From positions 111,445 through 175,444 of the forward strand of contig NZ_FOYZ01000007.1 in assembly GCF_900112775.1 (NCBI RefSeq): DNA of 64,000 bases, given 5' to 3'. The notes beneath the pieces were generated by a model that had not been told where the DNA came from, made no database searches, and saw only the letters and a list, made by a program, of their open reading frames with translations. Of this stretch, positions 25,181 through 29,722 are shown in pieces (position 1 is the first letter of the stretch; every line of letters starts with the position of its first letter). The stretch comes from Anaeromicropila populeti (GTDB taxonomy: Bacteria > Bacillota > Clostridia > Lachnospirales > Lachnospiraceae). The translations under genes were made by a program, and so were the position numbers.

Positions 25181-25213
25181 AAGGTTGCCAGATGAAATGG
25201 CAGCCTTATTTTT
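25181..25213 (+). terminator. intrinsic terminator of pyrG
   Basis: AAGGTTGCCA (25181-25190) pairs with TGGCAGCCTT (25198-25207), then ATTTTTAG. Confidence 0.75.
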
Positions 25214-25257: not shown

Positions 25258-25995
25258 TTATTCATCATATATGAATTCTTTAAAAATAAGCCCTACATTT
25301 GTTTTCCTATGTAACGAATGGCAACCCTGCATTATAAATTTCCATGTTGCCACATAATCACCAGAAACCTTTATCTCTGGATTATTTATATAAAGTATAA
25401 ATTCCTTTTCTCTATCTATATACTGATCTGAAAACTGCTCTGCTAGCTGTACTTTTCTATTTTTATCAACTTCCTCAACTATATTATATAGAACATGCTC
25501 CAAATTTCTGGAAAAGTAATATATTCTATAATTTAATTTGTACACTATACCATCATTCTCTTTATTTGGTATTTGCTTAATAATATAAGTCTTTTTTATT
25601 AAAAAGGATAAAATATCTCTTTTTCTTATATTTCGAGCAATCATCCGATTTCTATCTTTTGCATAAATAAAGTCCAAAGTATAACTCGTTACCTGATTCT
25701 TTGATTTTAATACCTTTTCTGGTGCAACCCCAGCACCATCCATATCTGTTAGCTGAATGATCTGCAAAATATCACTTGCCGTTACTTGTGGATTCTTTTC
25801 TAAAAACTTGTCAATTTTGCTAATTATAACTGAGTCAATATTATTTTTCCCAATATTCTCGTCTGCTGTTATATCTGTTTTTATTATTTCAAATTTAATC
25901 CTTTCATGTTCAAAAATAACTTCAAAAATAGTCTCCAAAGCTTCTACATCTGATTTTCCTTCCACTAAAAAAAGAACTATTTTCTTTTCCCTCAA
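25258..25995 (-). CDS. TOPRIM-domain protein, partner of an ATPase (putative phage defence)
   Basis: 245 residues. FLVEGKSD (9-16) with Glu12 and LTDMDGAG with Asp84 and Asp86 form the acidic triad of TOPRIM nucleases. No other domain is recognised; the C-terminal 150 residues are basic and aromatic. The start codon overlaps the end of the upstream ATPase gene by 4 bases, so the two are translated together. ATPase plus separate TOPRIM protein is the layout of split OLD-type systems such as AbiL (AbiLi/AbiLii), RloAB and PARIS (AriA/AriB). Which of these it belongs to, if any, cannot be settled by eye. Confidence 0.68.
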   Translation of the reverse strand: MREKKIVLFLVEGKSDVEALETIFEVIFEHERIKFEIIKTDITADENIGKNNIDSVIISKIDKFLEKNPQVTASDILQIIQLTDMDGAGVAPEKVLKSKNQVTSYTLDFIYAKDRNRMIARNIRKRDILSFLIKKTYIIKQIPNKENDGIVYKLNYRIYYFSRNLEHVLYNIVEEVDKNRKVQLAEQFSDQYIDREKEFILYINNPEIKVSGDYVATWKFIMQGCHSLHRKTNVGLIFKEFIYDE

Positions 25996-27395
25996 TCCTC
26001 ATTCCTCCCAGACTTTCTAAATGCTCGTTTAATTTTTGCTTGACTTGTAGATTTGTAAAAATGTTCTTCTGTTCCCAGATAGATTTCCCTTAAATATGAT
26101 AACCTTTTATTTTGAGTATTTTTAATATATTTAAGTCCACCATAACAATTTTCTGAATCTGTTGTTGTAAATATTAACGATTCGTTGTCCAATACCTCTA
26201 ATGGTCTTAAATTATGTGAAGTAAAAATCATTTGTCCTTGAGCTGATTCCTGCATTATTTCTATTAATTGTCCTAATAAATATTCAAAAATACCCGAATC
26301 CAATTCATCTATTATTAAACAAACAGATGCTCTATTATAACAAGCTATTATTGCATTGCATACTGAAATAAGTTTCTTAATACCAGCCGATTCACATTCT
26401 AAAGGTATTAGACTTCCATTTCTTTTTGTTGCAAGTTCAAAGCTAACGCCAGGCTCTCCATTATCCAAAAGTTTATTTTCCACATTACTTACTTGTAAAA
26501 CTAAATCTGGAATTAAGGCACTGATAACTGCATTCGTCTGATTAACAACTTTTTCAAATACAATGAATAACTCTTTGGACAAAATAGCTTTTTTTTCAAT
26601 ATCTATTGATAACTGCCCTACTAATTGACTAGATTCCTTTTTCATATTTAAATGAAATACCATTTTAGATAAATTCAGATCTATTAAACCCAGATCCTCA
26701 TTTTGAATTACAATTAAATCTTTAGTTGCATAGTCTACTAGGCTATTTATTATCTCATAAACTTCTTTCAACTCTATTATTTTAGAAAATACTTCTCCCA
26801 CAATTTTTGAAAATATAATAGATTTATTGTGAGATATTCCTGTTTTGTCATCATATATATTGGCTAACTCTTGTGCCATCTTTACACGAACAAAATTATC
26901 TAAATCAGACTTTAAAAGATCCGTTATCTCTTTTTGTCTAAAAACTAACTCTCTATCATCTTCATCATAACTCAAAATCTTTTTGTTTGATTTCCATATA
27001 CCACTTTTACAGACTGCACCATAGAGCTTTTCTTCTGTTAAAACAATTCTTTTATTATCTTCCTTTTTAATTGCAAAAGAATACTCTATATTATACTTAT
27101 CACTTCCTCTTTCCACGTAAAACCAAAATCCTAATCTCGCTTCATTTTTACTACTTTTTATATATTTATAGGTATTAGGTGGTAACGTATCTCCCACAAG
27201 AATATTTTTAAGCATATACATAACATCTACAACTGCCGTTTTTCCTGAGCCATTTTGTCCATATATTCCTAATATACTATTTTCTCCTTTATATTCGTTG
27301 TTCTTGCTGTATTTGGATAAAACAATTGTACCATTTGTAACATTTTTTATATTATTTATACTTATTTTTTGTAATCTGACAAAATTGCTTTCCAT
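25992..27395 (-). CDS. SMC/ABC-like AAA ATPase of a two-gene defence-type module
   Basis: 467 residues. N-terminal Walker A GQNGSGKT (46-53), a central region of about 250 residues of helical character, an ABC-signature-like ESAGIKKL, Walker B CLIIDELDSG (acidic pair about 363-364) and the H-loop FTSHN. This is the AAA_15/AAA_21 pattern found in OLD nucleases, AbiLi and AriA. The protein has no nuclease domain of its own; the TOPRIM protein downstream supplies one. The pair is strikingly A+T-rich and has no housekeeping neighbours, consistent with horizontal gain. Function is inferred from architecture only. Confidence 0.72.
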   Translation of the reverse strand: MESNFVRLQKISINNIKNVTNGTIVLSKYSKNNEYKGENSILGIYGQNGSGKTAVVDVMYMLKNILVGDTLPPNTYKYIKSSKNEARLGFWFYVERGSDKYNIEYSFAIKKEDNKRIVLTEEKLYGAVCKSGIWKSNKKILSYDEDDRELVFRQKEITDLLKSDLDNFVRVKMAQELANIYDDKTGISHNKSIIFSKIVGEVFSKIIELKEVYEIINSLVDYATKDLIVIQNEDLGLIDLNLSKMVFHLNMKKESSQLVGQLSIDIEKKAILSKELFIVFEKVVNQTNAVISALIPDLVLQVSNVENKLLDNGEPGVSFELATKRNGSLIPLECESAGIKKLISVCNAIIACYNRASVCLIIDELDSGIFEYLLGQLIEIMQESAQGQMIFTSHNLRPLEVLDNESLIFTTTDSENCYGGLKYIKNTQNKRLSYLREIYLGTEEHFYKSTSQAKIKRAFRKSGRNED

Positions 27396-27489
27396 TATAC
27401 TACCTCCAATATTTTAACCAATACTATTATATCACTTTATTATACGAAAACAACATGAATTTGTTAAAAAAATTAACACTTTGTTCACA

Positions 27490-28470
27490 TTACCCCCAAT
27501 AGCATTCTTTTTCCTTCTCTGTTAATTGTTCCACAAACTCCTTCTTTCTCCTTAAAAACTGCTCTAAATCTGCCAATATTTGAAACAGCACTGCCCTGCT
27601 TTCAAATTCCATCCTGCTCTTTGGCAGTTCATCTTGCTTATAAAAGGCTTTTAGCTTTGCCAGTTCATCTAATAAAGCAGCCGCATTATTAGATTCGTGT
27701 AAACTTTCTGCAATGTGCTTCAGAAGAAGGGCGATTCCCTCTGCCTGCAATGGAACACCCGATAGCATTAAAATATGCTGATATATATTTTTCAAAATGT
27801 CTACTTGTTTTTTCCGCATTTCCATATATTCAATAAAATATTTGGTATCGGCAAAAAAATGGTTATTCATATTTTCAAATGCCTTTTTTGTTGCAGTATG
27901 AATCAGCCTTTCCAATGGGATAAAGCAGTCATCGGTATAGTTACCTTTATCAACCTGCAACACATAAAATGCCATTCTATCTAAAATAGCTTTAAAAGCT
28001 GTTTCAATTTCCATTTGACTTCTTCTGATATCTTTTATATTTCTTGGATTATAAAGATTAAGAATAACACCCATTCCTGCACCAACCAAAAGAAGCCCCA
28101 CCTCATTTTGTATCAGTGAAGCCTTCATATTGCCCTGTGCCAGAAAATGCGTGGCAAGAACAGCATTCATTGCAATTGCATCCTGTACGTTCAATACATC
28201 ACATATAAGAATAAAGAGAAATATAAAAATTCCAAATGAAACACCTTGATATCCAAACACATAAAAAATAATGCTGCAAAGAAATAGCATGATGAGAAAG
28301 GCGCCCATTCTTTTTAGCACAAGATAAATTGTTTCCTTCTTTGTATCCTGAATTGTCAGAAGTGTTATGATCCCTGCCGATGGGGCAAATATCAAATTAC
28401 ATTTATATGCAATCAGAATACTTAAAGTTGCCCCTACTGCTATTTTTAGAAACTTAAAATACTTTATCAT
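27490..28470 (-). CDS. aromatic-acid-exporter-family membrane protein (ArAE/FUSC-like)
   Basis: About 326 residues from the ATG ending at 28470, preceded by AGGGGGAA. Four to five hydrophobic segments occupy the first 150 residues (SAGIITLLTIQDTKKET after the second, as in PF06081-type proteins), and a helical cytoplasmic region of about 170 residues follows. The family is named for aromatic acid efflux in Gram-negative relatives; the substrate of Firmicute members is not established. The preceding gene on this strand stops 29 bases upstream, so they may be co-transcribed. Confidence 0.72.
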   Translation of the reverse strand: MIKYFKFLKIAVGATLSILIAYKCNLIFAPSAGIITLLTIQDTKKETIYLVLKRMGAFLIMLFLCSIIFYVFGYQGVSFGIFIFLFILICDVLNVQDAIAMNAVLATHFLAQGNMKASLIQNEVGLLLVGAGMGVILNLYNPRNIKDIRRSQMEIETAFKAILDRMAFYVLQVDKGNYTDDCFIPLERLIHTATKKAFENMNNHFFADTKYFIEYMEMRKKQVDILKNIYQHILMLSGVPLQAEGIALLLKHIAESLHESNNAAALLDELAKLKAFYKQDELPKSRMEFESRAVLFQILADLEQFLRRKKEFVEQLTEKEKECYWG

Positions 28471-28498
28471 GCTTCCCCCTTGTGTATCTGACTCTGTT

Positions 28499-29722
28499 TC
28501 ACATATCATTAGTATTCATTAAAAAATCAACTGCGTTTATCCATTTGATTCCCTCAACTTTAAAAGTAAGCTCTTTGTCAAAGGAAATTACCAGTTTTAC
28601 AAAATTATCACGAATAGCTTTTAACGATGCCAGTTCTTTTTCCACTGTTGTTTCACTATCCAGCAAATCCACAACTTGTATATAAATTCTTTCCATTTCT
28701 TTCATTGCTACAAAGTCAATTTCCTTTGCATTAAATTTTCCAACATAAACCTTATATCCTCGCCGCAATAGTTCTAAATAGACTGCATTTTCAAGTAGCG
28801 CTTCTCTTGTCAATATCTGATATCCTAAAACCCCATAACTGATTCCTGCATCACACAAGAAATATCTTTCCAATGTTTCCAAAACCCGTTCTCCCTTAAT
28901 ATCATATCTGGGGGCCTTATAAAACAGAAAGCTTTCTTCCAGTACCTTTACATAGCTGTATACCGTATCCATTCCCAGCTTCTTCCCCTGACTTTTCATA
29001 AAGTCACAAATACTCTTCACAGACATTGTTTTGCCGATATTCTGCACCAGATACCGGACAATCTCTTCCATTAAAACAGCATCCCGAATTTTGTTTCTCT
29101 GAATTACATCCTTTAACATGACATATGCATAAATACCTTTTAAATGCTGGCTTACTAACTCTTCATCCGAACTCATCCAATGAACTCCTGGAAACCCTCC
29201 ATACTTTAAAAATCTTAAAAATAAATCATAAAACATATCTGAATCACAGTACTTTTCCCCACAGTCCACTTCTAAATATTCAAGATATTCCCAAAAACAA
29301 AATGGATAAATCGGAATCTCCACATATTTATCCCTCCATTCTTCCAACACCCTCATTTGCCCCGTCGAACGTGTTACATATATCTCACAATCTATATTTT
29401 CCTGAAGCCTAAAAACAGCATTTTCCCAATCTTCAACTTCCTGAATTTCATCTAATAAAAAATAGTATTTTTCTTCCTGCTCCTCTGCCTTGTTTATCAG
29501 ATACTGAAACAGACTTTCTGCGTCTTTGTCCATATACTGAATGTCAGCCTCAAAATTAATTGAAATAATATGATCTGGCAAAATTCCTCCTGCTTGTAAT
29601 CTGTCTGCCAGAAGTGCCAAAACACTGCTTTTTCCCGTTCTCTTAATACCAACCAGCATCTTTACAAGTGGCGAGTCAAAATGCTTTTCTAATAGGTCCA
29701 TATAATGTGGTCTCTGAATCAT
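28499..29722 (-). CDS. AAA_14/DUF4143 ATPase
   Basis: 407 residues. Walker A VGIKRTGKSS (about 24-33), Walker B FLLDEIQEV (about 92-100) and the arginine-sensor region VTRSTGQMRVL, followed by the C-terminal DUF4143 domain with a restriction-nuclease-like fold (ENAVYLELLRRGYKV, then EIDFVAM). Such proteins are widespread, often in accessory regions, and their role is unknown; a toxin-antitoxin-like or defence role has been proposed for some. Start chosen by family alignment of MIQRPHYMDLL; a GAGGAT site lies upstream. Confidence 0.82.
   Translation of the reverse strand: MIQRPHYMDLLEKHFDSPLVKMLVGIKRTGKSSVLALLADRLQAGGILPDHIISINFEADIQYMDKDAESLFQYLINKAEEQEEKYYFLLDEIQEVEDWENAVFRLQENIDCEIYVTRSTGQMRVLEEWRDKYVEIPIYPFCFWEYLEYLEVDCGEKYCDSDMFYDLFLRFLKYGGFPGVHWMSSDEELVSQHLKGIYAYVMLKDVIQRNKIRDAVLMEEIVRYLVQNIGKTMSVKSICDFMKSQGKKLGMDTVYSYVKVLEESFLFYKAPRYDIKGERVLETLERYFLCDAGISYGVLGYQILTREALLENAVYLELLRRGYKVYVGKFNAKEIDFVAMKEMERIYIQVVDLLDSETTVEKELASLKAIRDNFVKLVISFDKELTFKVEGIKWINAVDFLMNTNDM

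What the first reader, a model, noticed from the sequence alone, without database searches (positions are those of the whole stretch)
25258..27395. ATPase + TOPRIM gene pair with the layout of a split OLD-type phage-defence system
Seen: a 467-residue ATPase with GQNGSGKT, ABC-signature-like and DELDSG motifs, overlapping by 4 bases a 245-residue protein with VEGKSD...TDMDG, a TOPRIM acidic triad. Known: AbiL, RloAB and PARIS pair an AAA_15/21 ATPase with a separate TOPRIM protein, while OLD fuses them. Inference: this is an abortive-infection-type module, possibly a new subtype because the TOPRIM partner is short and its C-terminal 150 residues match nothing I recognise. It lies in an A+T-rich accessory block between pyrG and the mannanase gene.
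Basis: partly seen in the sequence, partly recalled or inferred. Interest (0 to 1): 0.78.

Follow-up and report, generated by a model that had tools for sequence, protein, structure and literature searches.

The report
Two-gene ATPase plus TOPRIM defence cassette
This is a self-contained pair of genes, an ATP-driven sensor-type protein and a separate TOPRIM-type nuclease, that jumps between gut and soil Clostridia and most likely shuts down cells infected by viruses; it works like known systems such as AbiL and PARIS, but its nuclease belongs to a family that no reference library I searched has named.

Summary
A 467-aa ABC/OLD-type ATPase (25992-27395, minus strand) overlaps by 4 bases a 245-aa TOPRIM-like protein (25258-25995). 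The pair is a real, conserved two-gene unit. All 85 relatives fetched independently carry the ATPase directly upstream. Across 115 TOPRIM homologues the acidic residues E12, D41, D84 and D86 are never substituted. The ATPase is recognisably AbiLi-like (PADLOC 7e-28; 30/30 homologues). The TOPRIM partner is not AbiLii/RloB, AriB or any other named family. Profile-profile comparison gives at most 16% probability against six AbiLii subgroups, which recognise each other at 95-100%. It has its own hallmark, SxN[LM][ED]H, followed by a conserved ~60-residue tail. AlphaFold models it well (pLDDT 90), but no solved structure matches confidently. The unit moves as a bare cassette: near-identical copies sit in unrelated flanks, with homology ending about 60-140 bp outside the genes. 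It also occurs on plasmids, a phage-like plasmid and viral contigs, and the two genes decay together. The best reading is an abortive-infection-type defence module that works like split OLD systems (AbiL, PARIS) with a new effector family. Defence itself, the trigger and the nuclease substrate are inferred, not shown.

The parts
25992..27395 (-). ABC/OLD-type ATPase (467 aa): Walker A GQNGSGKT, signature-position ESAGIKK, Walker B/D-loop IIDELDSG, H-switch TSHN; presumed sensor/regulator subunit
   Evidence: AAA_21 2.1e-9; AbiLi 7.3e-28; motif columns invariant or nearly so in 65 homologues; AF2 pLDDT 85.8; Foldseek: Rad50 and retron PtuA ATPases, E about 1e-12
25258..25995 (-). TOPRIM-like effector (245 aa, TTG start, 4-base overlap with the ATPase): N-terminal TOPRIM core (E12, D16, D41, D84, D86) plus a family-specific C-terminal half (SxN[LM][ED]H at 162-167, K181, W218, R230, N233)
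   Evidence: conservation in 115 sequences; AF2 pLDDT 90.3, pTM 0.88; 60% profile match to OLD TOPRIM
27439..27467 (-). promoter-like site TTAACA-17-TATAAT (11/12) just upstream of the ATPase gene; would make the pair an independent transcription unit
   Evidence: the best-scoring site in the region, but the total number of sites is no more than in shuffles
25181..25207 (.). intrinsic terminator-like hairpin between the convergent ends of pyrG (+) and the TOPRIM gene (-)
   Evidence: 2 found, one per strand, 0.4 expected

Best explanation
A mobile two-gene anti-phage (abortive-infection-type) module. The ABC/OLD-type ATPase forms the sensing and scaffolding complex and holds the small TOPRIM protein inactive. 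A phage-derived trigger changes the ATPase state and releases or activates the TOPRIM protein. That protein then cleaves nucleic acid by a metal-dependent TOPRIM reaction (E12/D16/D41/D84/D86, with E/D166-H167 probably completing the site), stopping growth before the phage matures. Shown here: the strict pairing, the gene order, the invariant catalytic-type residues in both proteins, the relationship of the ATPase to AbiLi, the mobility as a bare cassette and the joint decay. Inferred from AbiL and PARIS: defence function, inhibition by the ATPase, the trigger, and the substrate (tRNA as for AriB or DNA as for OLD/GajA; I lean slightly to RNA because the effector is a separate, releasable protein).
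For: Pairing: 85 of 85 relatives found through the TOPRIM protein have the ATPase gene immediately upstream on the same strand, most often overlapping (with L186 overlapping by more; for a further set). Conservation: E12, D41, D84, D86, H167, K181, W218, R230 and N233 are never substituted in 112-115 sequences; Walker A, Walker B and signature residues are invariant in 65 ATPases. Relationship: ATPase vs AbiLi profile probability 99.3%. Mobility: Lachnospira MAG L155 and Mediterraneibacter agrestimuris L169 share a 95% block running only from 139 bp before the ATPase gene to 57 bp after the TOPRIM gene; Fusibacter tunisiensis and F. paucivorans likewise (92% over 2352 bp). The pair is found on three plasmids, one phage-like plasmid and five viral contigs. 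Presence is patchy: 32/299 genomes of the family, 6/200 in the phylum. Joint decay: in Paenibacillus plasmid pART37 the TOPRIM gene is a frame-broken relic and the ATPase has lost the Walker B glutamate (E364K), while sister plasmid pY5S7-1 is intact at the same site. Literature: AbiLii of Fusobacterium is toxic in E. coli (PMC3985639), AAA-TOPRIM pairs behave as toxin-neutraliser pairs (PMC10440598), AriB is a tRNA-cutting TOPRIM nuclease that dies with E26A (PMC12409363).
Against: No functional data exist for any member that I could find. The window copy is not in a defence island: its neighbours are ftsH, pyrG, an aromatic-acid exporter, an AAA_14/DUF4143 gene and a GH26 mannanase. Across 20 loci, neighbours match specific defence models only a little more than matched control regions from the same genomes (one Septu-type PtuA and PtuB match, one PDC-S01 and AriAB-type matches, against mostly generic ATPase hits). 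In AbiL from Fusobacterium, AbiLi did not neutralise AbiLii (PMC3985639), so inhibition by the ATPase may not apply.
Confidence: 0.66

Rival explanations
1. It is simply AbiL (AbiLi + AbiLii), already described, with an AbiLii too divergent for the model.
For: The ATPase matches PADLOC AbiLi in 30/30 homologues and at 99.3% by profile-profile. The best viral structural match of the TOPRIM model is an RloB-like protein (Foldseek prob 0.89 over 266 columns, TM 0.36-0.40), and AbiLii is RloB-like (PMC10440598).
Against: No AbiLii match in any of 30 homologues. Profile comparison with six AbiLii subgroups gives at most 16% and only the TOPRIM core, although those subgroups find each other at 95-100%. 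The downstream motif differs (SxN[LM][ED]H, spacing mode 67, range 66-86, from DxD, against SNPxFE, spacing 27-36). The ATPases separate from AbiLi with support 0.993 on a long branch. AbiLii itself occurs elsewhere in 45/150 genomes of the family.
Confidence: 0.12
2. A DNA repair or chromosome-maintenance pair (RecF/Rad50-like ATPase with a RecR- or MksG-like TOPRIM) rather than defence.
For: The ATPase fold matches Rad50 (Foldseek 5e-13). TOPRIM occurs in RecR and MksG/JetD. An archaeal OLD-type ATPase (Cran1) acts in the cell cycle (PMC12796447). The window locus lies among metabolic genes.
Against: RecF model 18.3 bits vs cut-off 172. Equally good structural matches are the PtuA ATPases of defence retrons. 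Presence is patchy, the cassette is mobile, it occurs on plasmids and viral contigs, and it decays: not the pattern of a housekeeping gene.
Confidence: 0.07
3. A plasmid-addiction toxin-antitoxin pair (TOPRIM toxin, ATPase antitoxin) with no phage trigger.
For: Overlapping two-gene layout, plasmid carriage, and toxicity of TOPRIM partners in related pairs with AAA neutralisers (PMC10440598).
Against: Found mostly on contigs with no sign of being plasmids. Size and ATP-hydrolysis motifs suggest active sensing. AbiLi of Fusobacterium did not act as an antitoxin (PMC3985639). In pART37 the TOPRIM gene decayed while most of the ATPase stayed, which neither supports nor excludes this.
Confidence: 0.15

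Closest known systems
AbiL (AbiLi/AbiLii; RloA/RloB-type) of Lactococcus
   Same: Two adjacent genes, ATPase first, TOPRIM second; ATPase clearly homologous (PADLOC 7e-28, hhalign 99.3%)
   Different: TOPRIM partner not recognised by AbiLii models or profiles; different downstream motif and spacing; ATPases form a separate clade
PARIS (AriA/AriB, DUF4435)
   Same: Split ATPase + TOPRIM; the AriA model also matches the ATPase (1.1e-11); weak 20%-identity alignment of the TOPRIM model to a chain of a PARIS structure (8ux9_A, rank 45, E=0.24)
   Different: No AriB match in 30 homologues (DUF4435 not among the families shown); AriB-type proteins show a different motif after the TOPRIM core; Ocr sensing not tested
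OLD family class 1 and GajA (class 2)
   Same: ABC/OLD ATPase with TOPRIM; VEGxxD...DxD core, 60% profile match to OLD TOPRIM
   Different: Not fused: 85/85 loci keep two genes; no GajB helicase next to the window pair
Septu (PtuAB) and retron-associated PtuA
   Same: ATPase fold (Foldseek 1e-12)
   Different: Partner is TOPRIM, not HNH; no reverse transcriptase among the genes next to the window pair

Membership tests
AbiL | AbiLi-type ATPase | tested here: met
   PDLC02335 7.3e-28, 30/30 homologues; but a sister clade with split support 0.993
AbiL | AbiLii (RloB-type TOPRIM) partner | tested here: not met
   No AbiLii hit in 30 members at E<=1; hhalign 0.2-16% vs 95-100% among AbiLii subgroups
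PARIS | AriB (DUF4435) TOPRIM partner | tested here: not met
   No AriB hit in 30 members at E<=1; DUF4435 absent from the 25 of 36 Pfam families shown; own genome has no DUF4435 match
PARIS | Triggered by Ocr-type anti-restriction proteins; tRNA cleavage | not testable with these tools
   Needs experiment
OLD (class 1) | ATPase and TOPRIM fused in one protein | tested here: not met
   Two ORFs in the window and separate adjacent genes in all 85 relatives
OLD / TOPRIM superfamily | TOPRIM core: Glu at the end of strand 1, DxD after strand 3, Rossmann-like order | tested here: met
   E12, D84, D86 never substituted in 112-113 sequences; strands 5-11, 33-39, 76-84 alternating with helices; 60% to OLD TOPRIM; Pfam Toprim hit below cut-off
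Gabija | Adjacent GajB UvrD-like helicase | tested here: not met
   Window neighbours are pyrG and an ArAE_1 exporter; no helicase
Septu | PtuB HNH partner | tested here: not met
   Partner is TOPRIM-like
Abortive infection systems generally | Protects the population from phage by arrest or death of infected cells | not testable with these tools
   No functional data

The most novel reading that the evidence does not exclude
A separate, unnamed class of split OLD systems whose effector is a new TOPRIM nuclease subfamily: a TOPRIM core completed by the invariant SxN[LM][ED]H element and a W/S/R/N-bearing helical tail, with its own trigger and substrate, common in gut Clostridia and missed by current detection models for the effector.
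Probability: 0.5. Interest if true: 0.65.

Novelty: new variant of a known kind. Interest (0 to 1): 0.5.

Why it matters
About one in ten genomes of this bacterial family (32 of 299) carries the pair. Of its two genes only the ATPase matches a defence model (AbiLi), so the effector would be overlooked. It gives a clean, testable example of how one ATPase scaffold has been paired with TOPRIM effectors that diverged beyond sequence recognition. It also names the residues (E12, D16, D41, D84, D86, E166, H167, K181, R230) that a mechanistic study would mutate first, which bears on the open question of what TOPRIM effectors in uncharacterised defence pairs cut.

Tried and rejected
Single-sequence search of genome contigs with the TOPRIM protein found nothing; the alignment found 318 relatives. 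PDB sequence searches found no relative of the TOPRIM protein. A weak PADLOC AbiD match (7.7e-4) occurs in only 1 of 30 homologues and was rejected as chance. PDC-M12B and HEC-01B gave weak hits in a few homologues, but the fetched members share only the VEG segment. Foldseek of the TOPRIM model against PDB and viral models gave nothing at E<=0.001. A defence-island test on 20 loci against 20 control regions gave only a weak signal. Within-genus comparison was impossible: the genus holds one genome. The broad ABC-ATPase classification paper I wanted to check for this family is not held, so an earlier catalogue entry for this pairing cannot be excluded.

Full report
Observation. On the minus strand an ATPase gene (25992-27395, 467 aa) is followed, with a TTGA overlap, by a gene for a 245-aa protein (25258-25995). 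The ATPase carries a Walker A (GQNGSGKT), an ABC-signature-position element (ESAGIKK), a Walker B with D-loop (IIDELDSG) and a TSHN switch. It matches Pfam AAA_21 (2.1e-9, above the curated cut-off) and PADLOC AbiLi (7.3e-28). The small protein alone gives only a sub-threshold Pfam Toprim match (0.03) and no NCBIfam match.

The pair is real and strictly conserved. Homologues of the small protein were found in 32 of 299 genomes of the same family (most full-length, a few fragments at lower scores), in 6 of 200 genomes across the phylum and as 318 relatives in the species-level genome collection (named loci mostly Lachnospiraceae and other Clostridia). In 85 of 85 fetched relatives the ATPase gene lies immediately upstream on the same strand, usually overlapping (L186 counted by hand, its called start overlaps further). 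The conserved acidic positions fall at or just after the predicted strands of a Rossmann-like order (strands 5-11, 33-39, 76-84), and the SxN[LM][ED]H element follows a further long strand (150-161), in an AlphaFold2 model of high confidence (pLDDT 90.3, pTM 0.88).

What it is related to. By profile-profile comparison the ATPase family matches AbiLi ATPases at 99.3% yet forms its own clade, separated from 28 AbiLi ATPases and one HEC-01A ATPase with split support 0.993 on a long branch. The TOPRIM family does not match AbiLii. Against six AbiLii/RloB subgroups taken from genomes of the same family the probabilities are 0.2-16%, the best of them aligning only the TOPRIM core, whereas those subgroups find one another at 95-100%, so the test had power. 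None of 30 homologues hits AbiLii or AriB in PADLOC, and DUF4435 and RloB are not among the 25 of 36 Pfam families shown for them. Its best known-family profile match is the OLD TOPRIM (60%, 32 columns), similar to that of the closest AbiLii subgroup (60%). RloB-type proteins carry SNPxFE 27-36 residues after DxD; this family carries SxN[LM][ED]H 66-86 residues after it, mode 67. Foldseek found no confident match in the PDB (best E 0.045; a PARIS chain at rank 45 with 20% identity). Its best viral match is an RloB-like protein at probability 0.89 with TM 0.36-0.40, which suggests a remote common architecture. The ATPase model matches Rad50 and the PtuA ATPases of defence retrons equally well.

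How it behaves in genomes. The pair travels as a bare cassette. A Lachnospira MAG and Mediterraneibacter agrestimuris share a 95%-identical block that begins 139 bp before the ATPase gene and ends 57 bp after the TOPRIM gene, with unrelated flanks. Fusibacter tunisiensis and F. paucivorans share a 92% block with similar limits. Copies lie on plasmids of Ruminococcus, Lysinibacillus and Paenibacillus, on a Clostridioides phage-like plasmid and on five viral contigs. In Lacrimispora and relatives it sits at one stable site whose downstream flank is better conserved (84%) than the pair (68%), consistent with fast evolution of the pair. In Paenibacillus plasmid pART37 the TOPRIM gene is a broken relic (57 residues recognisable) and the ATPase has E364 replaced by K, while the sister plasmid pY5S7-1 is intact at the same site: the two genes lose function together. 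In the window the two genes stand out at 28% GC against 36.6%. They have a strong promoter-like site upstream (11/12) and a hairpin terminator between their end and the convergent pyrG. The neighbours are ftsH, pyrG, an ArAE_1 exporter, an AAA_14/DUF4143 ATPase and a GH26 mannanase, so this copy is not in a defence island. Over 20 loci the neighbourhood scan showed only a weak excess of specific defence genes over matched controls.

Mechanism. The best reading is a split OLD-type abortive-infection module: ATPase as sensor and restraint, TOPRIM protein as metal-dependent nuclease released or activated on infection. Published parallels: AbiLii of Fusobacterium nucleatum is toxic in E. coli, though AbiLi did not neutralise it (PMC3985639); AAA-TOPRIM pairs act as toxin-neutraliser pairs (PMC10440598); AriB of PARIS is a two-metal tRNase abolished by E26A (PMC12409363). 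Steps shown here: pairing, residues, relationships, mobility, joint decay. Steps inferred: defence, restraint by the ATPase, trigger, substrate.

Verdict. It works like AbiL and PARIS, but is not a member of either: the defining TOPRIM partner test failed for both. It is not a fused OLD protein, Gabija or Septu. I file it as a new variant of a known kind (split ATPase-TOPRIM defence modules). Whether an earlier catalogue of ABC-ATPase conflict systems already lists this pairing without naming it could not be checked, as that paper is not held.

Noticed in passing
window 28499-29722 (-): AAA_14/DUF4143 ATPase gene whose end overlaps the ArAE_1 exporter gene (27490-28509); AAA_14 1.3e-19, DUF4143 1.1e-14.
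   Followed up: no
   Followed up: partly
L076 (own genome, contig C27:262067-262771): The window's own genome also holds an AbiLii-type gene next to an AbiLi-type ATPase, but the AbiLii reading has 5 in-frame stops in the matched stretch, so it may be degraded or the model match may run past the gene end.
   Followed up: no
L035 vs L033: Two Paenibacillus plasmids with the same flanks: one has the intact pair, the other a relic TOPRIM gene and an ATPase with E364K.
   Followed up: yes
L115, L121, L123: MAG contigs labelled Paenibacillaceae carry the pair; L121 and L123 match Lacrimispora at 93-96% in pair and flank, so the labels look wrong or the bins are mixed.
   Followed up: no
L177: A contig binned as Bacteroides carries a Clostridia-type pair (73% DNA identity to a Lachnospiraceae copy over about 2 kb); likely mis-binned or a recent transfer.
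   Followed up: no
L036: Lachnospira eligens megaplasmid carries an intact-looking ATPase of this family with no TOPRIM partner or relic detectable downstream.
   Followed up: partly
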